DNA of 64,000 bases from Roseovarius atlanticus. GTDB taxonomy: Bacteria; Pseudomonadota; Alphaproteobacteria; Rhodobacterales; Rhodobacteraceae. Every line of letters starts with the position of its first letter. Position 1 is the stretch's first letter. Below, piece after piece: positions 1,389 to 21,220 of this stretch. The stretch spans positions 62,001-126,000 of the forward strand of contig NZ_LAXJ01000005.1 in the NCBI RefSeq assembly GCF_001441615.1, given 5' to 3'. Made by a program: the position numbers and the translations under genes. The notes under the pieces were generated by a model. The model did no database searches and had not been told where the DNA came from. It saw only the letters and a program-made list of their open reading frames with translations.

Positions 1389-1417
1389 GGCGGCACGGCA
1401 CGCACCGCCCCAAAGGG

Positions 1418-2803: not shown

Positions 2804-2902
2804 GGGAAGCTCCATCAGGTCGGGCCCGGCACAGCGGCCGGGGGCGGATGAGTGCACAGCAGTGCGATTGCATCATAATCAGCCGTGAAACTGCGACTGT
2901 CG

Positions 2903-2935: not shown

Positions 2936-3201
2936 AAAGTGGTGAGCTACTTTCGCTGAAACGCGAAACGCGTGCTATTCTGCTGATTTCCGAGACGGTT
3001 TTCCCGAAACTTCGGTTCGGAAAGGTGGAAGAAGCCGCGTCAGCCAGACAAAATCATTGATCGGAATCGTAAATTCGGATCGGATGAGGCCGCATCTGCC
3101 ATCGGGGGCAGCGTGATGGCATGGTTTCTGCCGTGCAGCGAATGTCCCCGGCAAGGATGGCGCAACAAAAAAGAAACGACAGTCCAGGGAGACAAGAAGC
3201 A

Positions 3202-4191: not shown

Positions 4192-4209
4192 GGCGGTTCA
4201 CGCAGGATA

Positions 4210-4239
4210 GACCGCGGGCCACGCGCATGGCCCGCGGTC
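4210..4239 (+). other. Perfect 12-bp hairpin between tauA and tauB
   Basis: GACCGCGGGCCA and TGGCCCGCGGTC form a perfect 12-bp stem around a 6-nt loop, 19 bases after the tauA stop and 40 before tauB. No T-run follows, so it is better read as a 3' mRNA-stabilising element than a terminator. Such elements are common after highly expressed binding-protein genes. Confidence 0.7.
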
Positions 4240-4279
4240 ATTCAAGACCTACAAAAATCTCGAAACGAAGGGGGCAGGC

Positions 4280-6393: not shown

Positions 6394-6410
6394 CGCCAGC
6401 GATATGGCAG

Positions 6411-6440
6411 AAACGCCCGGCCGATGCGCCGGGCGTTTTG
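6411..6440. terminator. Bidirectional intrinsic terminator after tauC
   Basis: AAACGCCCGGC and GCCGGGCGTTT form a perfect 11-bp stem with a 6-nt loop, followed by TTG on the plus strand and preceded by A residues that give a T-tract on the minus strand. It lies 18 bp after tauC and just before the 3' end of the convergent Lrp gene, so it can serve both. Confidence 0.85.
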
Positions 6441-6442
6441 TT

Positions 6443-6886
6443 TCAGGCGCGCATGTCCTTGGGCGAGCCCATCACCACGAAAGAGGTGATGGCGTTGACC
6501 TGCGGCAGGGTGCCGATCACGTCGGTGTGGAAAGACTTGTAGGCGGGTAGGTCGGCGACCTCGATCCGCAGAAGGTATTCGACCGAGCCGGTGATGTTGT
6601 GACACTCCACCACCTCGGGGGCGATGGCCATGGCGCGCTCGAAGGCGACCTGGCTGTCCTTGGTGTGGGAGTTGAGGCCGACCGTTGCATAGGCGACGAA
6701 ACCGACGCCCAGCTTGGAGCGGTCGAGCACGGCGCGGAAGCCGGTGATGATGCCGCGGCGTTCGAGATCCTGCACCCGGCGCAGGCAGGCCGAGGGCGAG
6801 AGGCCGACTCGTTCCGCGAGGTCCAGATTGCTGATCCGACCGTCACGTTGGAGTTCTTGCAATATCTTGTCGCTGATTTGATCCAT
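6443..6886 (-). CDS. Lrp/AsnC-family transcriptional regulator
   Basis: A 147-residue Lrp-type protein. It has an N-terminal HTH (MDQISDKILQELQRDGRIS, then LAERVGLSPSACLRRV) and a C-terminal RAM/AsnC ligand-binding domain (HNITGSVEYLLRIEVADL). ATG at 6886 is the canonical family start, although the frame is open to 7126. It is divergent from a LysE-type exporter with an 82-bp gap, the usual arrangement in which an Lrp-type regulator senses an amino acid and induces its exporter. The amino acid is not deducible. Confidence 0.93.
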   Translation of the reverse strand: MDQISDKILQELQRDGRISNLDLAERVGLSPSACLRRVQDLERRGIITGFRAVLDRSKLGVGFVAYATVGLNSHTKDSQVAFERAMAIAPEVVECHNITGSVEYLLRIEVADLPAYKSFHTDVIGTLPQVNAITSFVVMGSPKDMRA

Positions 6887-6968
6887 GGTGCATTCAGATT
6901 GCACAAAACTTTCAATAACACAAACAAACGCAATTTCACTGCGCCTTATGCGGCATATGGTTGCGTCC

Positions 6969-7571
6969 ATGACATTCGATCTGCTTCTTCTACTGTCGGG
7001 CTTTGCCCTAGCCACGGTCATCACGCCCGGGCCCAACAACCTGATGCTCATGGCTTCGGGGGCCAACTTCGGATTCCGCCGGACGGTGCCGCATATGCTG
7101 GGCATTACGCTGGGCTTTCCGTGCATGATCGTGCTCGTGGGCCTTGGCGTGATGCGGCTTTTCGATGTGTGGCCGCCCGCCTATGTGATCCTGAAGGTCC
7201 TGAGTGTGCTGTATCTTCTGTACCTGGCGTGGAAGATCGCCAATGCGGCGCCGCCAAAGGAAGCGCAGGCCGGGGGCAGACCGCTGAGTTTCCTGCAATC
7301 GGCGGCATTCCAGTGGGTGAATCCGAAGGCATGGAGCATGGCGTTGTCGGCCATCACCCTCTACGCGGCAAGCCGCGACCTTGCCGCCGTCCTGTGGGTC
7401 GCGGGCGTGTATGTTGTGGTGTCTGTGGTCAGCACGACAAGCTGGACAGTGCTGGGGCAGCAGATGCGGCGCTTTCTGAACAGCCCGACGCGTCTGCGGG
7501 TGTTCAACCGGGTGATGGCGGCGCTGCTGGTGGCCACGCTGATCCTCGTGCTGCGTCAGCCGCCGGCCTAG
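6969..7571 (+). CDS. LysE/RhtB-family amino-acid exporter
   Basis: A 200-residue membrane protein with about six hydrophobic segments and the LysE signature near the N-terminus (ITPGPNNLMLMASGANFGFR). The family exports amino acids or homoserine lactones. ATG at 6969 (MTFDLLLLLSGF) is preferred; in-frame ATGs at 6948 and 6957 would add a short polar tail. The divergent Lrp gene suggests induction by the exported amino acid. Confidence 0.88.
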   Translation: MTFDLLLLLSGFALATVITPGPNNLMLMASGANFGFRRTVPHMLGITLGFPCMIVLVGLGVMRLFDVWPPAYVILKVLSVLYLLYLAWKIANAAPPKEAQAGGRPLSFLQSAAFQWVNPKAWSMALSAITLYAASRDLAAVLWVAGVYVVVSVVSTTSWTVLGQQMRRFLNSPTRLRVFNRVMAALLVATLILVLRQPPA

Positions 7572-7602
7572 GGCGGGCTTGCGACGCACCCGCGATGCTG
7601 CG

Positions 7603-8238
7603 ATGACGGTCGGCATGACGATCACGCTTCTTCATACCGCCAAGGTGCATTGCGCGCGGTTCGACCGCATCCGTGACAGGATTGCACCGGACACGACCCT
7701 GAACCACATCGTGCGCCCGCGCTGGCTGCAGCGGGCCGAGGACGGCGGCGGCGCATCGCTGGAAGACGAGATTGCAGGCGTCGTCGCGCGGGCCCGGGGG
7801 CCGGTTCTGTGTACCTGCACGACGCTTGGGCCGGTGGCCGAGAGCGCGGGCGCGATGCGCGTGGACTGGCCGATGATGCGGGCGGCGGCAGGGGCGCGGG
7901 GGCCGGTGCTGATGGCGTTCTGTTTGGAAAGTACCTATGCGCCCAGTCTTGCTCTGCTGGAGCGGGCCTTGGCCGAGCAAGGGACGCCGCAAAAGGTTTA
8001 TCCCCTGCCGATGCCGCAATACTGGCTTTTGTTCGAGGCAGGCGAGACAGACGCCTTTGACGCCGTGATAGCGGGCGAGGTGCGGCAGGCCGTGGCGGCG
8101 CAGGGCGACGTGGCGGCGGTGGTTCTGGCGCAAGCCTCGATGGCGGGCGCGGCGGCGCGGCTGGAGGATCTGGGCGTGCCGGTGCTGAGCTCACCGGAGT
8201 TGGCGCTGCGGGCTGTGCTGGGCGTCGCGGGCGGCTAG
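7603..8238 (+). CDS. Asp/Glu racemase-like protein
   Basis: A 211-residue protein with the layout of the Asp/Glu/hydantoin racemase superfamily. One catalytic-loop equivalent, VLCTCTTLGPVAESAG (about residues 68-83), carries cysteines. The second, VVLAQASMAG (about residues 173-182), has Ser where racemases have the second catalytic Cys. Loss of one Cys suggests a different reaction or a non-catalytic role; malonate-decarboxylase-like members also use a single Cys. ATG at 7603 is the working start, and 7615 (MTITLLHTAKV) is equally possible. The 3' end overlaps the convergent GNAT gene by 4 bp. Confidence 0.6.
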   Translation: MTVGMTITLLHTAKVHCARFDRIRDRIAPDTTLNHIVRPRWLQRAEDGGGASLEDEIAGVVARARGPVLCTCTTLGPVAESAGAMRVDWPMMRAAAGARGPVLMAFCLESTYAPSLALLERALAEQGTPQKVYPLPMPQYWLLFEAGETDAFDAVIAGEVRQAVAAQGDVAAVVLAQASMAGAAARLEDLGVPVLSSPELALRAVLGVAGG

Positions 8239-8762
8239 AGCCGTTTGAACATGTAGGTCGTGGAATGCAGCGTGCGCCCGTCGGGATCGAGGGCGAAATC
8301 GGGGATGACGCCCGCCACCTCGAACCCCACGGATGCGTAAAGCGATTGCGAGACGTCGCCGCTGCGGGTGTCGAGGGTGACGTTGGTCTTGCCCAAGGCA
8401 CGAGCGTGGTCCAGCGCGGCGGACAGAAGCACGCGCCCCAGACCGCGGCGGCGAGCGGTGGGATGGACCATCATCTTGGCGATCTCGGCCCGGTGCGGCT
8501 GGTTTCTTGGCATAGCGGTGATCAACTGGACCGTCCCTGCCAGCGTATCGCCAAGCTGGGCGGTGAACAGGCTGCGGGCGTTGGCCGTCACATGCGGAAA
8601 GACATCGTCGCGCCAAAAGGCGCTGGCCGTCTCGGGTGTGAGCGGATGCAGGAAGCTGACGGCGGCGCCGTCGGCCACGGTGTCGATCAGCAGGCGGGTG
8701 AGACCGTCAAGGTTTCGCTCCAGCTCGGGTCCGGTCAGCGCGGCGATCCGGGGCGGCGTCAT
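8235..8762 (-). CDS. GNAT-family N-acetyltransferase
   Basis: A 175-residue acetyltransferase. The acetyl-CoA motif A is clear: EIAKMMVHPTARRRGLGRVL (R/Q-x-x-G-x-G/A type), followed by AALDHARALGKTNVTLDTRS and an SLYASVGFEVAG motif B. The substrate is unknown. It is the second gene of a pair: its ATG overlaps the stop of the upstream XRE-cupin regulator (ATGA at 8759-8762), so the regulator and enzyme are co-translated. Confidence 0.88.
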   Translation of the reverse strand: MTPPRIAALTGPELERNLDGLTRLLIDTVADGAAVSFLHPLTPETASAFWRDDVFPHVTANARSLFTAQLGDTLAGTVQLITAMPRNQPHRAEIAKMMVHPTARRRGLGRVLLSAALDHARALGKTNVTLDTRSGDVSQSLYASVGFEVAGVIPDFALDPDGRTLHSTTYMFKRL

Positions 8763-9316
8763 GCGAGTGCCAGCAGGTAGCGGGCGCCGTCAGGCCCGGC
8801 GCGGAATTCCGACACGCCGTGCAGGCGGTAGCGCAGACAGTCGCCGGGCGACAGGCTGTGGGTCTGACCGTCGACGGTGATCTGCAACGCGCCTTCCAGC
8901 AATACGAAATGATGTTCGTGGCCCGGCACGCTGGGTTGGTCGTAGGAGATGTGCGCGTGCGGTTTCAGCGTCGCCTCGACCAGTTCGAGTTGCAGGTCGG
9001 CGCTGGGCGGCGAGACGTTGCGGCGGTGAAAGCCGTGACTGGCATCGTGATAGACCGGCTGGGCGTCGCGAGACACCAGCGCCTCAAAGCGGCCTTCCAG
9101 CGGCGCGATCAGTTGCGAGATCGGCAGGCGCAATGCGGTCGAGAGCTTGGCAAGGGTGTCGGCCGTCGGGCTGACCTCGCCATTTTCAATGCGCGAGAGG
9201 CTGGCGCGGCTGATGGTGCTGGCGGTGGCCAACTCCGCGAGCGTGAGGTTGCGCGAGTGGCGCAGGTCGCGGATGTGTCTGGCCAGCGGGGGCGGGACGG
9301 CGAGAGATGATTCCAT
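8759..9316 (-). CDS. XRE-family regulator with C-terminal cupin domain
   Basis: A 185-residue protein. Residues about 10-65 form an XRE HTH ([19 protein letters not shown], then [25 protein letters not shown]). The C-terminal part is a cupin ([20 protein letters not shown], then LSPGDCLRY). These proteins typically repress small metabolic or resistance operons and sense a small ligand in the cupin. ATG at 9316 ([11 protein letters not shown]) is chosen; the longer frame to 9433 would run across the accA promoter. It forms an operon with the GNAT gene. Confidence 0.88.
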
Positions 9317-9333
9317 AAATGGGAATAAATTCC
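9311..9333. promoter_or_regulatory. Alternating TTCC/GGAA palindromes at the XRE gene start
   Basis: TTCC (9311-9314), GGGAA (9321-9325) and ATTCC (9329-9333) alternate. GGAAT-AA-ATTCC at 9322-9333 is a perfect inverted repeat, and TTCCAT with ATGGGAA at 9311-9325 is a near one. They overlap the start codon of the XRE-cupin gene, so autoregulation is plausible. accA starts 93 bp away on the other strand. Confidence 0.4.
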
Positions 9334-9425
9334 ATTTTCGGGATTCGCGCAAGCCGGAACTTGCGAAGTTTGTTGAACCCCCGGGCCGTTTCCATATATC
9401 CCGTTGGCCAAACAGGAGCATGGGC

Positions 9426-10388
9426 ATGACCAACTACCTCGACTTTGAAAAGTCCCTGGCGGAAATCGAAGGCAAGGCCGAAGAGCTGCGAGCGATGGCG
9501 CGGACGACCGAGGGGATGGATGTCGAGGAGGAAGCCGGGGCGCTGGACCGCAAGGCGGCCACCATGCTGACCGACCTTTACAAGGACCTGACGCCGTGGC
9601 GGAAATGCCAGGTTGCGCGGCATCCGAACCGGCCCCATTGCAAGGACTATATCGAAGCGCTGTTCGAGGAATACACGCCGCTGGCTGGCGACCGGAACTT
9701 TGCCGACGACCAGGCGGTGATGGGCGGTCTGGCGCGGTTCGGTGACACGCCTGTGGTGGTGATCGGCCACGAGAAGGGCAACGATACCAAGTCCCGGATC
9801 GAGCGCAATTTCGGCATGGCGCGGCCCGAAGGCTATCGCAAGGCGATCCGGCTGATGGACATGGCGGACCGGTTCAACCTGCCTGTGATCACGCTGGTCG
9901 ACACGCCCGGCGCCTATCCCGGCAAGGGCGCCGAGGAACGCGGGCAGAGCGAGGCGATTGCCCGCTCGACCGAGATGTGCCTGAAGGCCGGTGTGCCTCT
10001 GGTCAGCGTGATCATCGGCGAAGGCGGATCGGGCGGCGCGGTGGCGTTCGCCTCGGCCAACCGCGTGGCCATGCTGGAACATTCCGTCTATTCGGTGATC
10101 AGCCCCGAGGGCTGTGCCAGCATCCTGTGGAAGGATTCCGAGAAGATGCGCGAGGCTGCTGAGGCGCTGCGGCTGACCGCGCAGGACCTGATGAAGCTGC
10201 GGGTGATCGACCGGGTGATCGACGAGCCCAAGGGCGGCGCGCACCGCGATCCCACGGGGGCGATGGCGTCGGTGGGTGATGCGATCCGCGCCATGCTGGA
10301 CGGTTTGAAGGATCTGTCACGCGAGGAGCTGGTGCGCGACCGGCGCGAGAAATTCCTTAAGATGGGCGCGACCGGGCTGGCCGCCTAA
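9426..10388 (+). CDS. accA: Acetyl-CoA carboxylase carboxyltransferase subunit alpha
   Basis: A 320-residue alpha subunit of the ACC carboxyltransferase. Together with AccD it transfers the carboxyl group from carboxybiotin to acetyl-CoA to make malonyl-CoA. Visible are the N-terminal helices ([20 protein letters not shown]), the crotonase-like core with [19 protein letters not shown] and [12 protein letters not shown], and the C-terminal GAHRDP segment. ATG at 9426 has AGGAG 7 bp upstream; the ATG at 9420 is too close to that site. Length and motifs are standard. The stop overlaps the convergent DUF4149 gene by 4 bp. Confidence 0.97.
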
Positions 10389-10783
10389 AGCGTGACGCCC
10401 AGCCGTATGATGGCCCACGCCGCGCCGGCGATATGGGCCAGCGTGATCAGTACCGAGAAGACGTGAAGCAGCTTGAAGCGCTTGGTGTGACCGGCGTCAG
10501 TTGCGGCGTTGATCCGGGGCATCAGGGACTGGCGCGCGTAAAGCGTGGTCAGCGCGATAACGACGAGTATCACTGTGGACAAAAGGTCGGAGAAGGCGGC
10601 GCAGACTGCGGCAAGAGCCGCCGTGCCCAGCACGAACAGGTAGAAATGCGGAAAGGCGCGGCGGATCAGTGGGCGCGCCGTCTCTTCCGGCAGGGCGCGC
10701 AGCACGAAGGCCGCGAAACCGAAGGCATAAAGCGTCATCCCGCCGAAGAGCAGCGCGGTCAGAAGCAGGGCGAGGATATTCAT
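10385..10783 (-). CDS. DUF4149-type membrane protein
   Basis: A 132-residue integral membrane protein with four hydrophobic segments (about residues 1-28, 45-65, 68-85 and 105-128). It shows the TMEM205/DUF4149 pattern: an [21 protein letters not shown] start and a central [13 protein letters not shown]. The function of the family is unknown. Its ATG overlaps the ubiG stop by 4 bp, so it is translated with ubiG. Confidence 0.75.
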
Positions 10784-11499
10784 GTCGTGGCCTCTGGTTT
10801 GCGGGCGGCGCCGATATAAATCACCCGCTTGAACGGCAGCACGCCGAAGGTGAAGTCCAGCCGCCGGGTCAGGCCGGTGGGGCCGAGACCGGCCATCTTG
10901 CCGGGGGTCAGGCCGGCCTGTTGCAATCCGTCCGTCAGTTCGGCGGGTTTGATGAACATCGCCGGATCGTGGGTGCCTTTGGGCAAGAGGCCAAGGATAT
11001 CCTCGGCCACGGTGATGGTGGCCAGCCGGGCGACCATATTGCGGTTGATCGTGTCGTAGAGGAACAGCCCGCCGGGTTTCAGGACGCGGGCGACCTCTTG
11101 CAGGACCTGCCCCAGATCCGAGACATGCTCCAGCACATCGACGCAGACGACAGCGTCGAATGCCGCATCGTCATAGGGCAGAGCCTCGCCCACGCCGGTG
11201 TCGTAGCGGATGTCGAGGCCGGATTGCGCAGCATGGGACCGGGCCGCGGCGATGGCCTCTTTCGCGGGGTCGATGCCGGTCACATGCGCGCCGCGCTGCG
11301 CTATGGCCTCGGCCATGAAACCGCCCGCGCACCCCAGGTCGAGCACGCTTTTGCCCGCCCAATCGATGTGCCGGTCGAAGAATTTCAGGCGGGCGGGCAC
11401 GAGGTTTTTCAGCGTGCGCACCCAGCGCAGATCGTCCGACCACCATTGCGCGGCGGCGGCGTCGTAGATCTCTTGCTTGTTGCGGGTTCGGTCGTTCAT
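10780..11499 (-). CDS. ubiG: Ubiquinone biosynthesis O-methyltransferase
   Basis: A 239-residue class-I SAM methyltransferase matching UbiG, which carries out both O-methylations of ubiquinone synthesis. The N-terminus (IYDAAAAQWWSDD) is the UbiG pattern. Motif I is VLDLGCAGGFMAEAIA, followed by VTGIDPAKEAI, DAVVCVDVLEHV and the C-terminal membrane-associated stretch FIKPAELTDGLQQAGL. Length is normal. A DUF4149 gene follows with an ATGA overlap. Confidence 0.95.
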   Translation of the reverse strand: MNDRTRNKQEIYDAAAAQWWSDDLRWVRTLKNLVPARLKFFDRHIDWAGKSVLDLGCAGGFMAEAIAQRGAHVTGIDPAKEAIAAARSHAAQSGLDIRYDTGVGEALPYDDAAFDAVVCVDVLEHVSDLGQVLQEVARVLKPGGLFLYDTINRNMVARLATITVAEDILGLLPKGTHDPAMFIKPAELTDGLQQAGLTPGKMAGLGPTGLTRRLDFTFGVLPFKRVIYIGAARKPEATT

Positions 11500-11542
11500 G
11501 GGCCGGAGATAGGCCGGAGGGCGCAGGCATCCAGAGGCGTCG

Positions 11543-12220
11543 TCAGGCCAGCAGCATCTTCAGCCCCTGCGTCACGTCCGAGCGGACGGCAAGGCGCAGG
11601 CCCGGCTCGTCGCCGGCCTTGAGCGCCGAGATGATCAGGCGGTGATAGCGCGGCGGCTCTTTCTGTTGCAGCTTGCCGTAGAGCGCCCGCATCGTGGGGC
11701 CCAGTTGCAGCCAGACGGTTTCGGCCATCGCCAGCATCGCGGGCGCCTGGGCGCGCAGGTATAGCGTGCGGTGGAATTCGAGGTTCGAGCGGATGTACCC
11801 GACCGCGTCCTGGTGGGCGATGTGATCGGTGATCCGAGCGTTGATGGATTGCAGCCGGTCGATCAGGGCCATGTGGGCGCGGGGCAGGGCGCGGCTGGCC
11901 AGCTCGACCTCGATCAGGGCGCGCAGGGCGGCCAGTTCCTCGATCCTTTCATTGCCAAGCTCGGGCGCGGCCAGGCGGCCCGAGCTGCTGACCGTCAGGG
12001 CGCCTTCGGCGGAGAGACGGCGCACGGCCTCGCGGGCGGGGGTCATGGAAACGTTGTACTCGGCGCCGACGCCGCGCAGGGTCAGGGCCTGGCCGGGGCG
12101 TAGTTCGCCATGCATGATGCGGCTGCGTAGGCCGCGATAGACGCGGTCATGGGCCGACCCGGTCGGGGCGGTGCCGGGGGCGGGGACAAGCCCGGCTTCG
12201 GAACGCGGCGGAAAGTTCAT
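11543..12220 (-). CDS. GntR-family regulator (FadR/FCD subgroup)
   Basis: A 225-residue regulator. The N-terminal winged HTH reads VYRGLRSRIMHGELRPGQAL, then VSMTPAREAVRRLSAEGAL; the all-helical C-terminal FCD domain contains the FHRTLYLRA stretch with its metal-binding histidines. The effector is unknown. It lies upstream of ubiG in the same direction with a 43-bp gap, but a functional link is not evident. Confidence 0.9.
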   Translation of the reverse strand: MNFPPRSEAGLVPAPGTAPTGSAHDRVYRGLRSRIMHGELRPGQALTLRGVGAEYNVSMTPAREAVRRLSAEGALTVSSSGRLAAPELGNERIEELAALRALIEVELASRALPRAHMALIDRLQSINARITDHIAHQDAVGYIRSNLEFHRTLYLRAQAPAMLAMAETVWLQLGPTMRALYGKLQQKEPPRYHRLIISALKAGDEPGLRLAVRSDVTQGLKMLLA

Positions 12221-12265
12221 GGCGCATTTGTGATCACGGATTGGCCCGCGGTCAATCCCGTTGCA

Positions 12266-12955
12266 TCACTCGAAGCGATAGCGGTGAAGTTCCGCGCCGT
12301 TTTCCCGCAGCCAGCGGCGCGGCGTGTCGTAATCAGGGCAAAGCCGTTCGACGATGGTCCAGAAGGCGTGGGAATGGTTCATCTCGACAAGATGCGCAAC
12401 CTCGTGCGCGGCGACGTAGTCGAGCACCTCGCGCGGGGCGAGGATCAGCCGCCAGGAATACATGAGGCCGGCATCATGGGTGCAAGACCCCCAGCGCGAG
12501 CGCGTGTCGCGCAAGGTCAGGCGGGCATATTCGCGGCCAACGGCCTGCGCGTAGTAGTCCGAGGCGGCGGCGAGGTGATCGCGAGCGCGGGTTTTCAACC
12601 AAGCCTGTACCCGCCGGGGCGCGGTTTCGGGCGGGCCGGGCACGGCTAGCGTGTCGTCTGCAAGCTGAATCCGCCGGCCCGAACCGGGCAAGAGACGGCG
12701 CAGGCGCCCCTCGACGGGCAGATCCGAGCCGATTCGCACCTCGGTCATGTCGGGCTGACGTGAAAGCTGCGCCCGCAGCCAGGCGGCCTTTTCGTTGGCG
12801 AAGTCCAGCGCCGTGCGTTCGGCGACGCCGGGGGGCATGGTCAGCGTCACGCGCCCGTCAACGCCCGACACCCTAAGCGAAATCCGCCGCGCCCGCGCCG
12901 AGCGGCGCAGGATTACTTCGACCGGGGGGTTGCCGGGCAGAACATGATGCCCCAT
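12266..12955 (-). CDS. YgjP-type zinc metallopeptidase (DUF45/M48-like)
   Basis: A 229-residue protein. The C-terminal half is the YgjP/DUF45 domain with the gluzincin motif VAAHEVAHLVEMNHSHAFW (HExxH plus downstream His) and the conserved SRWGSCTHDAGLMYSWRLIL stretch. The N-terminal half is the usual beta-rich part (VEVILRRSARARRISLRV). ATG at 12955 has AGAGGTGAG upstream; the frame stays open to 13426, but that stretch is antisense to the FYDLN gene. The physiological substrate of this family is not known to me. Confidence 0.88.
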   Translation of the reverse strand: MGHHVLPGNPPVEVILRRSARARRISLRVSGVDGRVTLTMPPGVAERTALDFANEKAAWLRAQLSRQPDMTEVRIGSDLPVEGRLRRLLPGSGRRIQLADDTLAVPGPPETAPRRVQAWLKTRARDHLAAASDYYAQAVGREYARLTLRDTRSRWGSCTHDAGLMYSWRLILAPREVLDYVAAHEVAHLVEMNHSHAFWTIVERLCPDYDTPRRWLRENGAELHRYRFE

Positions 12956-13491: not shown

Positions 13492-13567
13492 GGGGCCTTA
13501 GCTCAGCTGGGAGAGCGCCTGCATGGCATGCAGGAGGTCAGCGGTTCGATCCCGCTAGGCTCCACCA
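13492..13567 (+). tRNA. tRNA-Ala (GGC)
   Basis: A 76-nt cloverleaf: acceptor GGGGCCT pairs with AGGCTCC, D-arm GCTCAGCTGGGAGAGC, anticodon stem CCTGC/GCAGG around the loop ATGGCAT giving anticodon GGC, and T-arm GCGGTTCGATCCCGC. The CCA end is encoded. Only one G-T pair occurs in the acceptor stem, so it should be functional. Confidence 0.97.
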
Positions 13568-13980: not shown

Positions 13981-15735
13981 ATGGCAAAAAAACCAGCTTC
14001 TGACGATAAATCCGACACCTCCGGACGCGGTAAGAAAACACCCGCTGGCGAGGGTGCGGCCGGTCCGTCCCCGGAGGTTCAGCTTGTCTGGGCGCGGATC
14101 ATATCTCGAGCTGCGTCGGACAGTGATTTCGCATCCGTGCTGCGTGACAATCTTGGCGAGGCGTTCGCGGCGTTCGGAGTTTCGGACATCAGCGGCATCG
14201 ACCCCGAGGACGACCTGATCCCCACCTATTCGGACGCGCTTGAGATGATCGACGCGGCCACCAAGCCGCCCGCATCAGGCGAGGGCGTGATGCCGGGGCA
14301 GGACGCGGTCAACCAGGGCAGTGGCGGGATGACCGCCGGGTCCGGGGCCTGCCAGGCTTGCGCGGTGACGCAAGGCTGCGTGGCCAGCGGTTTTTGCGGG
14401 GCCTGTTTTGCGTCGGGGCAACCGCAGGCTGGCGGCGGCAGCGCCAATGCGCCGACCGGGTCCGAGGACCAGGACCAAAAGCCGGCAGAGCCCGGCGACG
14501 ACACCAACCAAGAGGCGCCGGCAGCGACGACAATTGCAACAACAGCTTTTACGACGGGATATACCATGCAGACTTCAGGAACTTCTTCGACACTTTCCGG
14601 CGATTGCGTTGGCTCGATCGGAACGGCCGGCTCTCTTGGTTCGGTTGGAGGCACGGCAGGGACCTTCGCGACCGCCGGAACCTACGGCAGCGCCGGGGCG
14701 CAGGCGCCTTGCGAGGCGACCAATGCGTCGCAGGCCTCGATCAAGCCAACGGTTGCGACGATCCGGCAATGCGAGATGACCCAGGCCAGCATCAAGCCGA
14801 CCGAATTGACGACGGCGACGCGGCTGACTCAACAATGCCTGACCACGCCGGTACCGACGACCGCGACGCAGGTGACCACGGGATCGCAGGTCACCAGCGG
14901 GCCGCAAGCAACATCCGGTAGCGTACTGACGAACCCCGGCCCGATATCGACCCGGCTGTCGGGTGGCTCTTACGCGGCGCCGATGTCGGGCGATTGCTGG
15001 GGCTCCGCCGGAACCTTCGGCAGTGCCGGGACATTTGGCGGCTGCGCGGGGTCCATCGGATCGGCCGGGACATATGGCAGCGGCGGATCGTCGGACTTGC
15101 ACGTCAACATGAAGACGGCCGATTTCTGCCTGACGCCCTGCGTGCAGACGACGGCGTCGATGGTGACCAGCGCGACCTTGCAGAAGCCTGCGATGAACGC
15201 CACGGCCCGCGCGCCGGTGTCCGGCGATTGTGTGGGCTCGGTCGGATCGGCCGGGTCGCTGGGCACCGTGGGCGGCACCGCCGGAACCTTCGCTTGCGCA
15301 GGCACCTATGGCTGTGCCGGGGCGCATTTGCAGATGAAGACGGCGCATATGCCGCAGGCGATGCAGTGCCAGACCGCCACTCAGGCCACCCAGGCGACGC
15401 AGGCAACCAACGCCATGTCGTCGACGCGTCTTTCCGGCGCGTCACTGGGTAGCTTCGCGACCTATTGCGGCTGTGTCGGCAACGACGGCGGCGCAGGCAT
15501 GACGGGTGATCCCCTGAGCGGTGATTGCTGGGGCTCGGCGGGCACGTTCGGCAGCGCCGGCACCTTTGGTGGCTGCGCGGGATCGGTGGGTTCGGCCGGA
15601 ACATACGGCAGCGGATCGAGCGAGTTGCAATCGCTTCAGGTGCAGCGGCCCGGCGCGGCCATGTCCGCCACGCGCATGATGCCGGTCAACATGGCCGAGC
15701 GTATGCCCAGCATGGGCTATGGCTACGGCTGGTGA
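13981..15735 (+). CDS. Giant repetitive TOMM/RiPP precursor protein (candidate)
   Basis: A 584-residue protein not recognised as any named family. Residues 1-30 are Lys/Ser/Gly-rich. Residues 34-70 (VQLVWARIISRAASDSDF, then LGEAFAAFGV) resemble the nitrile-hydratase-type leader of RiPP precursors. Residues 117-152 are Cys/Gly-rich (GACQACAVTQGC). Residues about 206-547 hold four 35-residue Gly/Ala/Ser/Thr/Cys repeats beginning SGDCVGS or SGDCWGS, built from hexads such as GSAGTF. Thr/Gln-rich linkers with ASIKPT and TQAT copies separate them. The C-terminus ends GYGYGW. There is no signal peptide and there are no membrane segments. The next genes encode an RRE-YcaO cyclodehydratase and SagB-type dehydrogenase, so the many Cys, Ser and Thr next to Gly are likely azole sites. 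That role is inferred; a structural repeat protein is the alternative. Confidence 0.75.
   Translation: MAKKPASDDKSDTSGRGKKTPAGEGAAGPSPEVQLVWARIISRAASDSDFASVLRDNLGEAFAAFGVSDISGIDPEDDLIPTYSDALEMIDAATKPPASGEGVMPGQDAVNQGSGGMTAGSGACQACAVTQGCVASGFCGACFASGQPQAGGGSANAPTGSEDQDQKPAEPGDDTNQEAPAATTIATTAFTTGYTMQTSGTSSTLSGDCVGSIGTAGSLGSVGGTAGTFATAGTYGSAGAQAPCEATNASQASIKPTVATIRQCEMTQASIKPTELTTATRLTQQCLTTPVPTTATQVTTGSQVTSGPQATSGSVLTNPGPISTRLSGGSYAAPMSGDCWGSAGTFGSAGTFGGCAGSIGSAGTYGSGGSSDLHVNMKTADFCLTPCVQTTASMVTSATLQKPAMNATARAPVSGDCVGSVGSAGSLGTVGGTAGTFACAGTYGCAGAHLQMKTAHMPQAMQCQTATQATQATQATNAMSSTRLSGASLGSFATYCGCVGNDGGAGMTGDPLSGDCWGSAGTFGSAGTFGGCAGSVGSAGTYGSGSSELQSLQVQRPGAAMSATRMMPVNMAERMPSMGYGYGW
14596..15621 (+). 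repeat. Four 35-residue coding repeats, alternating types A-B-A-B
   Basis: Within the precursor gene the copies lie at 14596-14700 (A), 14986-15090 (B), 15220-15324 (A) and 15517-15621 (B). Type A begins SGDCVGS and contains SLG, VGGTAGTF, AGTYG and AGA. Type B begins SGDCWGSAGTFGSAGTFGGC. A copies differ from each other mainly by Ala/Ser/Thr-to-Cys exchanges (FATAGTYGSAG against FACAGTYGCAG). B copies are almost identical. Start-to-start distances are 390, 234 and 297 bp, all multiples of 3. Confidence 0.9.
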
Positions 15736-15744
15736 CGTGCGGAT

Positions 15745-15774
15745 GCGGTTGCGGCCACGGCCGGCCGCGACCGC
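15745..15774 (+). other. 12-bp hairpin between precursor and YcaO genes
   Basis: GCGGTTGCGGCC and GGCCGCGACCGC pair over 12 positions (one G-T) around a 6-nt loop, 10 bases after the precursor stop and about 50 before the YcaO ATG. No T-run follows. It probably protects or partly terminates the precursor transcript so that precursor exceeds enzyme. Confidence 0.65.
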
Positions 15775-15827
15775 GACGACACGCCTTGATGTTCCTGACC
15801 GGACAGCGGCCCTGAAGGAGGTGCGCC

Positions 15828-18083
15828 ATGATTGCCCGACCCGTGTTGCGAGAGGATTTCGCCGTTTACCTTTTGCATGGCGAAGGCAATATCCTGTTGT
15901 CGGACTCCGAGAGTTTCGCGCTTGAGGGCGGTGTCATATCACCCGTCCTGTCCTTGATCGACGGTCGGCGCACGCGGACCGAGATCGTGGCCAGCCTCGC
16001 CGGTCAGATCGCGCCCGAGGAGGTTTCGCAGACGCTGGATTACCTGGCGCAGATGGGCCATGTGCGAGAGGCCGACGCCGACGCCGCGCCGGACGAGGCG
16101 CTGTTCTGGTCCAGCGTCGGGATCGACACCCGCATCGCGCGTGACAGGGCCGCGGCCTTTCCGATCCAGGTTGTCACGCTGGGTGAAACCGATCCCGCGG
16201 CGGTGACGACATGGCTTGGCTCGATGGGGTTGCAGGTGGCGTCCGAGGGCACGGACGGTGCGGTGGGACTAGTGCTTGCGGATGATTATCTCGATCCGCG
16301 GCTGGCAGAGTGGAATGGATATTTCCACGCGCAGGGCAAACCGTGGCTTCTGGTGCGGCCCGCCGGGCTGAAGCCGTTGGTGGGGCCGCTTTTCGTGCCG
16401 GGCGCGACCGGCTGTTGGGAGTGCCTGCGCACGCGGCTTGCCGAGAACCGGGAGGTCGAGCTGATGCTGTCGCGGCGGCTGGGGATCGCGGGCCCGCCGG
16501 ACAGGCCGGTGTCGCGGCCGCAGGCCTTTGTCGCGCAGGCGCTGAGCGCGGCGGCGGTGCAACTGGCGCGGTTAGTGCAGTCGGGCCGCAACACCGACCT
16601 GGAAGGGCGGATTCAGGAGCTTGACCCGATGGCCCTGTCGCGGCGGCAGCACCCGCTGCTGGCCCGGCCGCAATGCCGCTGTTGCGGCGACCCCGAAATT
16701 GGCCGGATCGGCGGCGCGCCGACCGAATTTCGCGCGTTCCGGTCGGTCAAGGGGGTCGAGAACGGCGAGCGCAGCGCCAGTGCCGCGCAGACGCTGGCCC
16801 GCTACAGCCCGCTGATCAGCCCGCTGACCGGGATCGTCAAGGAACTGATCCCCAGCCAGTGGAACGGGCAGACGCCGCTGCGGTCCTACAGCGCCGGCAA
16901 CAACCTTGCGGTGGCGCCGATGGCCCTGATGGGGCTGAAGCAGAACCTGCGCAGCTATTCTTCGGGCAAGGGGCGCACGGACCAGCAGGCGCGGACATCG
17001 GCCCTTTGCGAGGCGCTGGAGCGTTACAGCGGCAAGTATCGCGGCGAGGAGGTCATTCTGCGCGGCACGTTGCGGCAGTTTGGCGATGCCGGCATCCACC
17101 CCAATGACCTGATGCTGTACTCGGAACGGCAGTACCGCGAGCGCGACGCGTGGAACGCCCGTGGCAGCCAGTTCCAGGTGGTGCCCTACTGGCTGGAAGA
17201 CACCGAGGTCACCGACTGGACGCCGGTCTGGTCGCATACCGAGAAGCGCATCAAGTATCTGCCCGCCAGCCTGATGTTCTACAGCTACCCGGTGGAAGGC
17301 GCGCGGTTCACCAGCTGGGCCGACAGCAATGGCTGCGCGGCGGGCGCGTCCTATGAGGATGCGGTGCTGCAGGGTCTGTTCGAACTGGTCGAGCGCGACA
17401 GCGTCGCGGTCTGGTGGTACAACCGGGTGCCGCGGCCGCAGGTCGACCTGGCGGCGATGGATGATCCGTTCATCGCCGAGATGCAGGACTGGTTCGCCCG
17501 GATCGGGCGCGAGTTCTGGGTGCTGGATCTGACAACCGACCTGGGCATTCCGTCCTATGTCTGCCTGAACCGGCGCACTTATGGGCCGACCGAGGATATT
17601 GTCATGGGGTTCGGCGCGCATCTGGATGCGCGGACGGGAATTCTGCGGGCGATCACCGAGATGAACCAGTTCATGCCCGCGGTTCTCGACGTGGCCGAGG
17701 ATGGCACCACGCGCTATGCGTTCGACGATCCCGAATGCCTGCACTGGTGGCATACCGCCACCTACGAGAACCAGCCCTACATTCAGCCCAAGGGGCAGGC
17801 CGTGTTCGATCCTGGCGCGCAGGCAGACCGCACGGGCGGGACGATATCGGACCTGCTGGCCGAGGCGATCGGCGCGATCGAAAGGGCCGGACACGAGCTT
17901 TTGATTCTGGACCAGACCCGTGCCGATGTGGGCCTGCCGGTGGTCAAGGTCATGGCGCCGGGCCTACGGCATTTCTGGGCGCGGTATGCGCCGGGTCGGC
18001 TTTACGACGTGCCGGTCAGGATGGGGGATCTGAAGGCGCCGCTGGACGAGGCCGCGCTGAACCCCATCGCGATGTTCCTGTGA
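15828..18083 (+). CDS. RRE-E1-YcaO azoline-forming cyclodehydratase fusion
   Basis: A 751-residue TOMM cyclodehydratase. Residues 1-85 (VLREDFAVYLLHGEGNILL, then LLSLIDGRRTRTEI type) look like a RiPP recognition element that binds the leader. Residues about 90-290 are an E1/ThiF-like scaffold with the structural zinc pairs C196-x2-C199 and C283-x2-C286. Residues about 320-751 are the YcaO domain, with the ATP/Mg motif S391-A-L-C-E-A-L-E-R399-Y, a second motif GLFELVERDS, and RAITEMNQ. The protein ends LNPIAMFL, resembling but not exactly matching the proline-rich C-terminus of azoline-forming YcaO enzymes. It uses ATP to cyclise Cys/Ser/Thr of the upstream precursor. GGAGG precedes the ATG. 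It is followed after 10 bp by the dehydrogenase gene. Confidence 0.92.
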   Translation: MIARPVLREDFAVYLLHGEGNILLSDSESFALEGGVISPVLSLIDGRRTRTEIVASLAGQIAPEEVSQTLDYLAQMGHVREADADAAPDEALFWSSVGIDTRIARDRAAAFPIQVVTLGETDPAAVTTWLGSMGLQVASEGTDGAVGLVLADDYLDPRLAEWNGYFHAQGKPWLLVRPAGLKPLVGPLFVPGATGCWECLRTRLAENREVELMLSRRLGIAGPPDRPVSRPQAFVAQALSAAAVQLARLVQSGRNTDLEGRIQELDPMALSRRQHPLLARPQCRCCGDPEIGRIGGAPTEFRAFRSVKGVENGERSASAAQTLARYSPLISPLTGIVKELIPSQWNGQTPLRSYSAGNNLAVAPMALMGLKQNLRSYSSGKGRTDQQARTSALCEALERYSGKYRGEEVILRGTLRQFGDAGIHPNDLMLYSERQYRERDAWNARGSQFQVVPYWLEDTEVTDWTPVWSHTEKRIKYLPASLMFYSYPVEGARFTSWADSNGCAAGASYEDAVLQGLFELVERDSVAVWWYNRVPRPQVDLAAMDDPFIAEMQDWFARIGREFWVLDLTTDLGIPSYVCLNRRTYGPTEDIVMGFGAHLDARTGILRAITEMNQFMPAVLDVAEDGTTRYAFDDPECLHWWHTATYENQPYIQPKGQAVFDPGAQADRTGGTISDLLAEAIGAIERAGHELLILDQTRADVGLPVVKVMAPGLRHFWARYAPGRLYDVPVRMGDLKAPLDEAALNPIAMFL

Positions 18084-18093
18084 GGATGCCGCG

Positions 18094-19554
18094 ATGTTCA
18101 TGAGCCTTTGCCGACCGCCCGGACGCAATGCCGACCCGCAGTCCCCGGCCGACCCCACGGCGGTGCTGGACGAGGTTCTGGCCAGCATCGGAACGTCCGC
18201 GCCGAACACGGCGGTCGCGCTGGCGGACATGCTGCGCGCGCCGGTCGCCCGAAGCGCGGTCGATGCGTTGGTGCTGGAGGCCATGCAGGGCGACGAGCCG
18301 CTGGCCGCCGTGGTCGCCAGCCGCACGCTGGACACGTTGGCGGCGCACCGGATGCTGGCCTACGCCACCACCGAGGATGCGGGCGAGGCGCTGTTTCGGC
18401 TGATGCCGGTCGCGGCGGGGCCGGCGATTTCAGGCGCGGAGGCCGATCCCGATACGGTGTACCGCCTGTCGCGCTTCGCGCAGGTGCGGATGGACGATGA
18501 CGGCATCTCGCCTGGGCGGTTGCCGGCGGAGGGCGGCCTGATCCTGGAAAGCCCGTTGTCGCGGTTTCGCTGCCATATCGCGACCGACGCGCGCAGCACC
18601 ACCGCGATGCGCAGCCTTGCCCTGCTGGGTTCGGGCGCGGGGCTGGACGCGTTTCACCGGGCGCGGATCACCGAAGAGGAATGCAAGCCGATCCTGGCGA
18701 TGCTTCTGGCGGCCGGATTGATCTGTCCGCTGGACGCCGAGGGGCTGAGCGCCGAGGACCGCGACCCGGTGCTGCGGCAATGGAGCGTGCATGATCTGGT
18801 CATGCATGTCCGGGCGCGTCTGGGGCGGCACGATCAGCCGATCGGCGGGGATTTCCGATTCAAGAACATCGTCGACCCGGTGCCCGCCATCCGCCCGGAG
18901 CCGGAGCACACGGCCCGCGTGCCCCTGCCCGTGCCGGACGAGGCGGCGATGGCGGCCACCGATCCCAGCCTGTCGCAAGTCATCGCGGCGCGCGCCTCGG
19001 TCCGACCGCAGTTGCGGCGGCATCTGACCTTGCAGGAGCTTGGCACCTTCCTGTGGCGCACGGCGCGGATCACCCGCAGCTTTGAAAGCGAGGCGGGAGA
19101 CTTCACCGCGCGCCCCTACCCGTCGGGCGGGGGCAGCTATGAGCAGGACGTCTGGGTCACGGCGCGCGAAGTCGCGGGATTGCCGCCTGGTTTTTATTTT
19201 TACGCCGCCACCACTCACGAACTGTTGCAGGTCCGCCCGTGGAACGCCGAGTGCGAGGCGATGATCGGGCAGGCAAGCACTGCCATGGCCGGAACGACAG
19301 TGCCCGACGCGGTGCTGACGCTTGGGTCAAGGTTCCAGCGGGTCAGCTGGAAATACTCGGGCATGGCCTATGCCACGCAGCTGAAGAACGCCGGGGCGAT
19401 CTACATGGCCTTCTACCTGGCCGCCACCGCGATGGGGCTGTCGCCTTGCGGTCTGGGCCTGGGCTCGATCGAGGTCTTCGCCCGGCTGACCGGCTGCCGG
19501 ATGGAACGAGAGGGATCGGTCGGTGAGTTCGCGCTGAGCGGACCCCCGGCCTGA
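18094..19554 (+). CDS. SagB-type FMN-dependent azoline dehydrogenase
   Basis: A 486-residue protein. The C-terminal 210 residues or so are a SagB/ThcOx nitroreductase domain: VIAARASVRPQLRRHLTLQELGTFLW type start, PYPSGGGSYEQDVWV, LPPGFYFYAATTHELLQ, KNAGAIYMAFYLAATAMGLSPCG and the closing GEFALSGPPA. It should oxidise azolines made by the YcaO enzyme to aromatic azoles using FMN. The N-terminal 280 residues hold a SagB-like helical accessory region with poor similarity that I can see. ATG at 18094 or 18100 could be used. It lies in an operon between YcaO and the peptidase gene. Confidence 0.88.
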   Translation: MFMSLCRPPGRNADPQSPADPTAVLDEVLASIGTSAPNTAVALADMLRAPVARSAVDALVLEAMQGDEPLAAVVASRTLDTLAAHRMLAYATTEDAGEALFRLMPVAAGPAISGAEADPDTVYRLSRFAQVRMDDDGISPGRLPAEGGLILESPLSRFRCHIATDARSTTAMRSLALLGSGAGLDAFHRARITEEECKPILAMLLAAGLICPLDAEGLSAEDRDPVLRQWSVHDLVMHVRARLGRHDQPIGGDFRFKNIVDPVPAIRPEPEHTARVPLPVPDEAAMAATDPSLSQVIAARASVRPQLRRHLTLQELGTFLWRTARITRSFESEAGDFTARPYPSGGGSYEQDVWVTAREVAGLPPGFYFYAATTHELLQVRPWNAECEAMIGQASTAMAGTTVPDAVLTLGSRFQRVSWKYSGMAYATQLKNAGAIYMAFYLAATAMGLSPCGLGLGSIEVFARLTGCRMEREGSVGEFALSGPPA

Positions 19555-19570
19555 GAGCGAGGAGAGCGCC

Positions 19571-21220
19571 ATGCCGCAGACCGGGTACCAGGAGTTCGAC
19601 CTTTGGACGATGCGGGATTTCGACGTCCAGATGACGGCGGACGACCGGCGCAACACGGCCAGCGGCCTGCGCGACCTTCTGCGGGACTATTACGTGCACC
19701 TGCCGCAGAAGGTGGGCGCGATGGCGATCAACCCCGACCGCGAGCTGGAGCTTCTGGCCGATGACGCGCCGCTATACCTCAACAATCTTGAATTCCTGGA
19801 CCGGCTGAATTCGGTCTTCACCAAGCTGCGCGACCGCCACACCGCGCTCCGCCTGCCCGACCCGCTGAACCGGATGATCGCCTTTCTGCCGGTGGTGCTG
19901 GAAAGCTGCTACGAGGGCGGGCGGCGCGTTCTGCTGGTCACCCGGATCGCGGGCGAGGTGCCGGACGACCAGCTGGAGGTGGGCGTCGAGGTCACGCACT
20001 GGAACGGCACGCCCGTGGCCCATCTGATCAACCAGTTTTCATGGAGCACGCCGGGGTCGAACCCCTATGCCCGCATCGCGCTGGCCCAGCGCAGCCTGAC
20101 GCTGCGGGCGCTGGGATACATGCAGATGCCGCAGGAGGACTGGGTGACGCTGAGCTACATCTCGCTCAAGGGCGAGCGGCGGCATATCAGCCTGAACTGG
20201 CGCATCGCGCTGGCGCCCGACGGCGGCGGCGGGGCGGGCGGGCTTTTGTCGGGGGCGGCGATGACCACGCCCTTGGCGGCGATGGTGGGGCTTGATGAGG
20301 GCACCGAGATCATCAACACCGGCTTGAAGGACATCTTCGCAAAGCCCCGTCGCGCCAGTGTGATCCGCAAGCGTGAGGGGCGGCACGGCGGGTTGTTGTC
20401 GGAACCGCTGGACGGCTCGGCCGGTCTGGAGAACCTGATAAGCGCCTCGACGCTGACGCTGGATGACGGGCGGGCCTATGGGTATCTGCGGCTGTTCTCG
20501 TTCTCGGTGCCGGATGTGCGCGGCTTTGCCGAGGAAATGGCACAAGTGCTGCGCCAGATGCCGCCCGCGGGGCTGATCATCGACGTGCGCGGCAATCCCG
20601 GCGGGACCATTCCGGCGGGCGAGGCGCTGCTGCACATGATCACCGACCGGGCGATCGAGCCCACGCGCAACGTGTTTCGCGCCAGCCGCCCCTTGCGAAC
20701 TATGTCGGGGGCGATCCCGTTTTTCGAACGCTGGCACCGCTCGCTGGAGATGGTCTACGAGACGGGCCAGGGGTTCTCGCAAGGGTTCGAGCTGTCGGAC
20801 CCCGAGCATTACGCCGGGCTGGAACACAGCTATGGCGGGCCGGTCGTGGTGGTGATCGACGCTCTGAGCTATTCCACGACGGATTACTTCGTGGCCGGGT
20901 TCGAGGACAATCGCCTGGGTCATATCCTGGGGCTTGATCCGACGACCGGAGCGGGCGGCGCGAATGTCTGGAGCCTGTCGCAGATTTCGGGCTTTGCCGC
21001 CGAGGCCGGTCTGCCGCCCATTCCGCATCTGCCTGTGGGCATGGACTGTCGCGTGGCCGTGCGCCGCGCGTTGCGCGCCGGGCCGAACCGGGGGCTGCCG
21101 CTGGAGGGGTTGGGCGCGACGGCGACGCAGCGCTATTTCCCGACGCGCCGCGACGTGCTGGGCGTCAACGAGGATATGCTGATCGCGGCTGTGAACCTGT
21201 TGCAGCAGCCGCCGCCCTGA
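19571..21220 (+). CDS. S41-family peptidase-like protein of the TOMM locus
   Basis: A 549-residue protein whose C-terminal half is a tail-specific-protease (S41) fold: YGYLRLFSFSVPDVRGF, LIIDVRGNPGGTIPAGEALL (about residue 338) and VVVIDALSYSTTDYFVAGFE (about residue 432, Ser of YSTTD as likely nucleophile). No signal peptide is seen, so it is cytoplasmic, unlike most S41 enzymes. The first 300 residues are specific, with no PDZ domain that I can recognise. It starts 16 bp after the dehydrogenase stop with a GAGGAGAG ribosome site. A role in leader removal or in cutting the multi-repeat product into units is the natural hypothesis. Confidence 0.8.
   Translation: MPQTGYQEFDLWTMRDFDVQMTADDRRNTASGLRDLLRDYYVHLPQKVGAMAINPDRELELLADDAPLYLNNLEFLDRLNSVFTKLRDRHTALRLPDPLNRMIAFLPVVLESCYEGGRRVLLVTRIAGEVPDDQLEVGVEVTHWNGTPVAHLINQFSWSTPGSNPYARIALAQRSLTLRALGYMQMPQEDWVTLSYISLKGERRHISLNWRIALAPDGGGGAGGLLSGAAMTTPLAAMVGLDEGTEIINTGLKDIFAKPRRASVIRKREGRHGGLLSEPLDGSAGLENLISASTLTLDDGRAYGYLRLFSFSVPDVRGFAEEMAQVLRQMPPAGLIIDVRGNPGGTIPAGEALLHMITDRAIEPTRNVFRASRPLRTMSGAIPFFERWHRSLEMVYETGQGFSQGFELSDPEHYAGLEHSYGGPVVVVIDALSYSTTDYFVAGFEDNRLGHILGLDPTTGAGGANVWSLSQISGFAAEAGLPPIPHLPVGMDCRVAVRRALRAGPNRGLPLEGLGATATQRYFPTRRDVLGVNEDMLIAAVNLLQQPPP

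What the first reader, a model, noticed from the sequence alone, without database searches (positions are those of the whole stretch)
13981..21220. A TOMM (azole-RiPP) locus with a 584-residue multi-repeat precursor
An RRE-E1-YcaO fusion, a SagB-type dehydrogenase and an S41-like peptidase directly follow a protein with a nitrile-hydratase-like leader and hundreds of Gly/Ser/Thr/Cys residues. Azole RiPP precursors are normally 40-120 residues. One carrying four 35-residue core-like units plus a Cys-rich region would be far larger than any I know. The product could be a heavily heterocyclised protein or several peptides released by the S41 enzyme. No transporter is next to it, so the product may act inside the cell or on the surface. 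The enzymes are seen in sequence; the substrate role is inferred.
Basis: partly seen in the sequence, partly recalled or inferred. Interest (0 to 1): 0.93.

Follow-up and report, generated by a model that had tools for sequence, protein, structure and literature searches.

The report
Giant azole-ladder peptide precursor with peptidase
A bacterial four-gene set encodes a 584-residue protein built around four related 29-residue units, each with ten Ser, Thr or Cys at strictly regular places, next to enzymes that likely turn these residues into thiazole and oxazole rings and a peptidase that would cut the units free; in relatives from several bacterial groups the units are better conserved than the enzymes, the reverse of the hypervariable cores described for this class of precursor.

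Summary
ORF 13981-15735 (584 aa) has a nitrile-hydratase-like leader, a Cys-rich stretch and four 29-residue units, followed by an E1-YcaO fusion (best solved match LynD), a SagB dehydrogenase and an S41 peptidase. In each unit all ten Ser/Thr/Cys lie at positions 1,4,7,10,13 and 17,20,23,26,29. Over 57 distinct units from 18 precursors these columns are Ser/Thr/Cys in 568 of 570 cells; nine of the ten columns were checked for the preceding residue, which is Gly/Ala in 512 of 513. Eight loci elsewhere (Pseudorhodobacter, Loktanella, Shimia x2, Salipiger, Devosia x2, a Bryobacterales MAG) have the same four genes in the same order, and no other shared gene reaches three loci. Units diverge less than YcaO and S41 in 36 of 36 locus pairs. 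They fall into two classes with opposite bulky/small patterns, both present in 17 of 17 precursors with two or more units. No C39 peptidase was found in the genome. Best reading: a self-contained multi-core azole RiPP. Heterocyclisation, cleavage and function are untested. A new variant of NHLP-TOMM systems.

The parts
13981..15735 (+). 584-residue multi-unit precursor protein (P0001)
   Evidence: homologues at 8 loci with the same neighbours
13981..14265 (+). nitrile-hydratase-like leader, residues 1-95; helical from about residue 30
   Evidence: AlphaFold2 pLDDT 93-97 over 31-90; Foldseek 8tb1, 2zzd, 6lk7 (weak E-values); NH_RiPP_Os17 E 0.043, below cut-off
14350..14409 (+). Cys-rich stretch CQACAVTQGCVASGFCGACF, residues 124-143
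   Evidence: Cys-rich stretches seen by eye after the leader in several relatives
14605..14691 (+). unit 1, class A (bulky at positions 5 and 11)
14995..15081 (+). unit 2, class B (Trp2, bulky at 8 and 14)
15229..15315 (+). unit 3, class A
15526..15612 (+). unit 4, class B; identical in amino acids to the last unit of L003 and L004
14947..14964 (+). linker motif STRLSG, candidate processing or recognition element
   Evidence: motif class 43 times in 22 of 36 precursors against shuffle mean 1.5, max 6; role inferred
15421..15438 (+). second STRLSG linker motif
15439..15480 (+). short motif ASLGSFATYCGCVG, a partial unit; before the last unit here, at the C-terminus in other relatives (by eye)
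15828..18083 (+). RRE-E1-YcaO fusion cyclodehydratase (P0002)
   Evidence: TIGR03604, TIGR03882, PF02624; LynD E 4e-157
18094..19554 (+). SagB/ThcOx-type dehydrogenase (P0003)
   Evidence: TIGR03605 133 bits, PF22767, PF00881
19571..21220 (+). S41 peptidase, CPAF-like fold, no signal peptide seen by eye (P0004)
   Evidence: PF03572, PF17816 below cut-off; H90, S435 and E512 invariant in 9 of 9; Foldseek best CPAF 1e-16

Best explanation
This is a self-contained four-gene module whose 584-residue precursor carries four 29-residue units behind a nitrile-hydratase-like leader, and whose E1-YcaO and SagB enzymes likely convert the ten Ser/Thr/Cys of each unit into azoles before the S41 peptidase would cut the linkers and free the units. 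Shown: the gene set, its conservation in order and content at 9 loci including this one, the exact 29-residue ladder, two unit classes, and stronger conservation of the units than of leader, linkers, YcaO, SagB or S41. Inferred: the leader docks on the RRE of the YcaO protein; heterocyclisation runs along each unit, giving two runs of five azoles spaced by two residues; SagB oxidises azolines to azoles; the S41 enzyme, taken as cytosolic, cleaves linkers, perhaps at the ST-x-L-S-G motif, to give class A and class B polyazole peptides in about equal amounts. Since no dedicated exporter lies in the module, no C39 peptidase was found in the genome and the units are hyperconserved, the product probably has a fixed target or fixed structure inside the cell or is released on lysis. 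An arms-race toxin with variable cores is less likely.
For: Same four genes at 8 of 8 loci with such a precursor, and no other gene shared by more than two of the 12 stretches compared. Ladder columns Ser/Thr/Cys in 568 of 570 cells of 57 distinct units; the seed pattern left columns 7, 10 and 23 free, and there it is 170 of 171. Only 5 of 1026 cells of the 18 non-ladder columns (column 15 left out) are Ser/Thr/Cys. In 25 further distinct units from 15 proteins not used to build the matrix: 248 of 250 (picked by that same matrix, so partly circular). In this precursor all 40 Ser/Thr/Cys of the four units sit on the ladder. Over the 9 locus precursors, Ser/Thr/Cys preceded by Gly: 346 of 431 in units, 128 of 833 in linkers. 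dN in units 0.05-0.09 against 0.34-0.60 in linkers and 0.29-0.52 in leader, for 4 pairs, dS high or saturated. Units are closer than YcaO in 36 of 36 pairs, than S41 in 36 of 36 and than SagB in 28 of 28 (8 loci, L007 left out). Both unit classes in 17 of 17 precursors with two or more units, equal numbers in 12 of 17. YcaO and S41 divergences agree (rho 0.78, 0 of 2000 permutations, 10 loci). Units are predicted disordered when unmodified. No C39 peptidase in the genome, control found in 8 of 14 genomes.
Against: No mass data were seen for any member. The window leader has no exact L(X)4L motif and no Gly-Gly in its first 110 residues; a Gly-Gly at 115-116 has no counterpart in L003, L005 or L006. 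Relatives of the S41 enzyme occur without YcaO: 5 of 6 extra genomic loci examined, two of them short contigs, and 4 of 4 plasmid loci, so the peptidase family is not tied to RiPPs. The STRLSG-type motif is absent in 14 of 36 precursors and stands before only some units. A conserved partial unit near the C-terminus could mean that the chain stays whole. The S41 model is of modest quality (pLDDT 61).
Confidence: 0.6

Rival explanations
1. The chain is heterocyclised but not chopped: it stays one large polyazole protein in the cytoplasm or on the surface, in which class A and class B units would pack against each other; the S41 enzyme only removes the leader or works as quality control.
For: Both unit classes present in 17 of 17 and 1:1 in 12 of 17, with opposite bulky/small patterns at positions 5, 8 and 11; a conserved partial unit near the C-terminus; no exporter in the module and no C39 peptidase; units hyperconserved.
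Against: Linkers are variable in length and sequence and predicted disordered; unit number varies from 3 to 8 among the 9 locus precursors, odd for a fixed structure; an S41 enzyme at 9 of 9 loci suggests cutting.
Confidence: 0.25
2. The S41 enzyme is an immunity or disposal protease, comparable to the nisin-resistance protein NSR, and maturation uses a housekeeping protease.
For: PMC4828448 treats NSR as a resistance protein against nisin and contains 'S41 peptidase' (listing and start of abstract only); that NSR is itself an S41 enzyme cutting nisin is recalled. No other candidate immunity gene is shared by the loci.
Against: NSR is membrane-anchored and works on incoming peptide (recalled), whereas these enzymes show no signal peptide by eye; no exporter in the module, so little sign of re-entry to guard against.
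Confidence: 0.1
3. An unmodified Gly-rich structural protein: Gly at every third residue would form polyproline-II-like bundles, and the YcaO neighbour acts on something else.
For: Gly-x-x periodicity; one relative weakly matches a collagen-like adhesin model far below its cut-off (P0008).
Against: Ladder columns exchange almost only among Ser, Thr and Cys; unmodified units get pLDDT below 50, though AlphaFold2 may miss such a fold; the module is shared at 8 of 8 loci.
Confidence: 0.03
4. A thiopeptide precursor, as the NCBIfam label 'thiocillin family RiPP' says.
For: NF033482 above cut-off for this protein and for P0006, P0008 and P0010.
Against: No gene beyond the four is shared by the loci, so no dehydratase or pyridine-forming enzyme belongs to the module; flanking genes of the relatives were not annotated one by one. 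The same label is given to a 105-residue precursor beside LanM in Thalassospira and to short ORFs in L013.
Confidence: 0.02

Closest known systems
NHLP-type TOMM / azole proteusin pathways (Haft 2010; MprE/MprC/MprD; nostatin A)
   Same: Nitrile-hydratase-like leader, E1-YcaO fusion (TIGR03882) and SagB-type dehydrogenase next to the precursor.
   Different: Precursor of 584 residues with four ordered units, not one short core; hyperconserved where the 2015 survey reports hypervariable cores; no conserved Gly-Gly site and no C39 peptidase in the genome; an S41 peptidase instead.
Cyanobactins (PatE/LynD/TruD)
   Same: YcaO protein closest in PDB to LynD and TruD; several cores on one precursor (recalled for PatE).
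   Different: Cores of about 6-8 residues there (recalled), 29 here; PatA/PatG S8 proteases replaced by S41; leader folded and of another family.
NHLP-Burk tandem or fused precursors
   Same: NHLP leader; fused precursors suggested to form two-peptide products (passage of PMC4603692).
   Different: Here one leader serves 3-8 units of two classes in the 9 locus precursors.
Linear azole peptides such as microcin B17 and phazolicin (recalled)
   Same: Gly followed by Ser/Cys as azole sites.
   Different: Single short core with an exporter there; multi-unit and no exporter in the module here.
S41 proteases CPAF and CtpB
   Same: S41 fold; CPAF is the best structural match.
   Different: About 17% identity to CPAF; partner of a YcaO pathway; no signal peptide seen by eye.

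Membership tests
TOMM / azol(in)e RiPP | YcaO cyclodehydratase with E1/RRE partner | tested here: met
TOMM / azol(in)e RiPP | precursor adjacent, with core rich in Gly-[Ser/Thr/Cys] | tested here: met
   40 of 40 Ser/Thr/Cys of the units on the ladder; Gly before 85% of them
TOMM / azol(in)e RiPP | azole or azoline rings in the product | not testable with these tools
   needs mass spectrometry
NHLP-type precursor | leader related to nitrile hydratase alpha, lacking CxxCSC | tested here: met
   Window: helical model and weak Foldseek matches 8tb1/2zzd/6lk7, NH_RiPP_Os17 below cut-off, no CxxCSC. Relatives: PF02979 above cut-off in P0025 and P0026, TIGR03793 38.6 bits against a cut-off of 50.9. 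The window protein alone reaches no curated NHLP cut-off
NHLP-type precursor | Gly-Gly cleavage site with C39 peptidase-transporter | tested here: not met
   no GG in first 110 residues, one at 115-116 not conserved; no C39 in the genome, control positive in 8 of 14
NHLP recognised through L(X)4L | L(X)4L motif in leader | tested here: not met
   no exact match in the window leader; Val/Phe substitutes are reported to work in MprE7
Cyanobactin | PatA/PatG-type S8 proteases in the cluster | tested here: not met
   not among the four shared genes nor the 17 window neighbours scanned; the rest of the genome was not searched
Thiopeptide (thiocillin family) | Ser/Thr dehydratase and pyridine synthase | tested here: inconclusive
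   none shared by the loci; genome search with PF14028 found nothing but its control was silent
S41 peptidase | S41 fold and catalytic residues | tested here: met
   PF03572, Foldseek CPAF, H90/S435/E512 invariant in 9 of 9; assignment of these as the catalytic triad is inferred

The most novel reading that the evidence does not exclude
A family of azole-ladder proteins: the whole chain is heterocyclised at 40 or more regularly spaced residues and kept as one molecule, in which class A and class B cassettes interlock bulky-to-small into a rigid polyazole scaffold with a housekeeping role in the cell, the first protein-sized material built from ribosomal azoles.
Probability: 0.2. Interest if true: 0.93.

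Novelty: new variant of a known kind. Interest (0 to 1): 0.82.

Why it matters
If the units are modified as the pattern suggests, one polypeptide would carry about 40 azoles, far beyond the two to six rings per peptide reported for MprE. It would show how one leader directs a YcaO enzyme across 500 residues, give a conserved, non-variable azole product whose target can be sought, and add an S41 peptidase to RiPP maturation; a 2023 review of RiPP leader proteases has no occurrence of S41. The two complementary unit classes give a direct structural prediction.

Tried and rejected
Thiocillin label: followed and rejected. Chance low-complexity match: rejected by shuffles and by the shared gene set. 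Insertion at the upstream tRNA-Ala (13492-13567): no tRNA lies beside the module in the 8 relatives (only L006 has one, about 9 kb away), so not supported as a general site. Phage origin: a viral-contig scan with the S41 alignment gave no relative. Promoter and terminator scan: at chance level. Literature searches (all ten allowed): none of the titles and abstract starts listed is about a YcaO system with a precursor of this size or with an S41 peptidase; listings were capped (20 of 62, 30 of 42), and papers outside the held library were not searched. Eight full or nearly full-length sister E1-YcaO loci from 394 family genomes hold no unit and no S41 in the 10-20 kb read; one of them begins at a contig end, so its upstream side is unread. 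The genome test for Lant_dehydr_C is uninformative because its control was silent. The precursor profile in 394 family genomes matched 18; beyond the own genome 16 match only in the leader region and 1 is a short stretch with two stops. I take the 16 to be nitrile hydratase chains but did not check them.
Full report
What is there. Four genes on the + strand, 13981-21220, spaced by 92, 10 and 16 nt: a 584-residue protein, a 751-residue RRE-E1-YcaO fusion, a 486-residue SagB/ThcOx dehydrogenase and a 549-residue S41 peptidase. The YcaO protein aligns over residues 10-749 with LynD (E 4e-157), including the Cys residues of the E1 region. The upstream flank holds accA, a methyltransferase, a GntR regulator, YgjP and FYDLN genes and a tRNA-Ala; downstream are a DUF4112 gene and a CheB-CheR-PAS kinase. 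The nearest transport genes among those scanned are an ABC importer and a TRAP system kilobases away.

The units. A position matrix seeded from 58 pattern matches found 68 units (57 distinct) in 18 precursors; 2 of the 20 precursors given (P0014, P0016) had none at the threshold and carry variants. Real units score 36-81 against a maximum of -2.9 in 50 rounds of shuffled precursors. The matrix has a fixed width of 29, and 29-residue matches without gaps fit throughout. Ten columns (1,4,7,10,13 | 17,20,23,26,29) are Ser/Thr/Cys in 568 of 570 cells; the residue before each of the last nine is Gly or Ala in 512 of 513; column 15 is Cys (34) or Gly (23); the other 18 columns are Ser/Thr/Cys in 5 of 1026. 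The seed pattern itself demanded Ser/Thr/Cys at seven of the ten columns, so the unbiased part is columns 7, 10 and 23: 170 of 171. A later set of 25 distinct units from 15 of 16 proteins outside the matrix gave 248 of 250, with Gly/Ala before in 217 of 225 and Ser/Thr/Cys in 12 of 450 other cells, though the matrix chose them. Exchange among the three residues that YcaO enzymes can cyclise, and almost none with anything else, is the strongest sequence evidence for modification.

Two classes. Splitting the 68 units by side-chain volume at positions 5, 8, 11 and 14 (k-means, two groups requested, silhouette 0.63, no null run) gives class A (Phe/Ile/Val5, mostly Ala8, Leu/Val/Phe/Ile11) and class B (mostly Trp2, Ala5, Phe/Ile/Val8, mostly Ala11, Phe14). 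All 17 precursors with at least two units have both; 12 of 17 have equal numbers; the orders include ABAB, ABBA, AABB and BAB. One class-B call in L007 (fifth unit) looks like class A by eye. That the opposite patterns mean pairing is inference.

Constraint. For four pairs of precursors dN is 0.05-0.09 in units, 0.29-0.52 in leader and 0.34-0.60 in linkers, with dS high or saturated. Mean best-match unit identity exceeds YcaO identity in 36 of 36 locus pairs, S41 identity in 36 of 36 and SagB identity in 28 of 28, L007 left out of the last; the fixed ladder residues and the best-match choice raise the unit value somewhat. The 2015 TOMM survey calls NHLP cores hypervariable (PMC4603692, passages), so this family behaves in the opposite way.

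Relatives. The genome-contig scan returned 11 loci. Eight carry all four genes in order: Pseudorhodobacter MAG, Loktanella, Shimia marina, Shimia sp., a Bryobacterales MAG, Salipiger bermudensis, Devosia nitrariae and Devosia sp.. Two are low-complexity chance matches and one (Alcanivoracaceae MAG) has short tandem precursor-like ORFs without these enzymes. All-against-all comparison of genes in 30 kb of the window and the 11 loci finds only the four genes shared by more than two (SagB of L007 was missed by the gene caller and found by tblastn; L007 has only about 0.7 kb upstream). The Bryobacterales YcaO is closer to the two Devosia ones (0.63-0.64) than these are to the window, Pseudorhodobacter, Loktanella, Shimia or Salipiger ones (0.44-0.49), which suggests transfer between phyla, or contamination of the MAG (taxonomy from record titles and recall). 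In 394 genomes of the window's family only the own genome has a full precursor. A full or nearly full-length E1-YcaO of another kind is found in 8 others, and none of the 8 has a unit or S41 within the stretch read, while 2 of 8 have a SagB relative. Two protein searches beyond the first brought the set to 36 precursor-like proteins, the weakest near E 1e-3, including a second subfamily with Thr at unit position 1.

Peptidase. H90, S435 and E512 are invariant in 9 of 9 and the fold matches CPAF best (one listed CPAF entry is an S499A mutant); the triad assignment otherwise rests on recall. No signal peptide is seen by eye. Relatives of the S41 enzyme: 2 of 385 class genomes, own included, 5 of 200 genomes of the Bryobacterales MAG's class and 4 plasmid records. 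Among those outside the module, 1 of 6 genomic loci and 0 of 4 plasmid loci sit with YcaO. The one (L077, same Bryobacterales genome) is a second YcaO-SagB-S41 set behind a different, Pro-rich ORF at the contig end. Divergence of YcaO and S41 agrees across ten loci.

Mechanism. The leader folds and the rest is predicted disordered when unmodified, as expected of a substrate. An NHLP leader has been shown to be recognised by a YcaO cyclodehydratase as a folded protein (PMC12455567, abstract and first part of main text), although the L(X)4L motif used there is not present in exact form here. The canonical NHLP exit, a C39 transporter at a Gly-Gly site, is not found. I therefore commit to heterocyclisation of the units in the cytoplasm followed by S41 cutting in linkers, with the [ST]T-x-L-[GST]-[GA] motif (43 copies in 22 of 36 precursors, shuffle mean 1.5) as candidate site. 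My odds: ring formation on the units about 0.85, release by S41 about even, A/B pairing about one in three.

Other papers used: PMC2887384, PMC11583998, PMC10676384, PMC10885120 (passages only). No claim is made about papers outside the held library.

Noticed in passing
L077 (G778:C72) 3-6116: Second YcaO-SagB-S41 set in the Bryobacterales MAG behind a Pro-rich ORF (PPTPAASYG repeats) at the contig end, so the three enzymes may serve another precursor type.
   Followed up: partly
L013 9836-10771: Alcanivoracaceae MAG with at least four tandem short ORFs (66-84 aa); two were read and have a single x-G-[STC]-like ladder ending in CCC, with no relative of this YcaO in the 12.7 kb held: possibly a single-core cousin of the unit.
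   Followed up: partly
P0025-P0031: A second group of precursor-like proteins in metagenomes with Thr at unit position 1 in most of them, in some STPLGG-like spacers, and NHase_alpha Pfam matches on several leaders; gene context unknown.
   Followed up: partly
G000:C73:17977-18915 (L002): A second YcaO gene in the same genome, in an open frame of 416 aa and so too short for an E1 fusion.
   Followed up: no
L091 (Thalassospira marina plasmid) 1926-12709: E1-YcaO with LanM, a P450-annotated protein, an S53 peptidase and a 105-aa precursor: a different hybrid azole RiPP cluster.
   Followed up: no
L089, L090 (Mesorhizobium and Bradyrhizobium plasmids): S41 relatives of this peptidase, one within an S8-annotated protein, with phospholipase D-like or patatin-like genes within about 7 kb and no YcaO relative.
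   Followed up: partly
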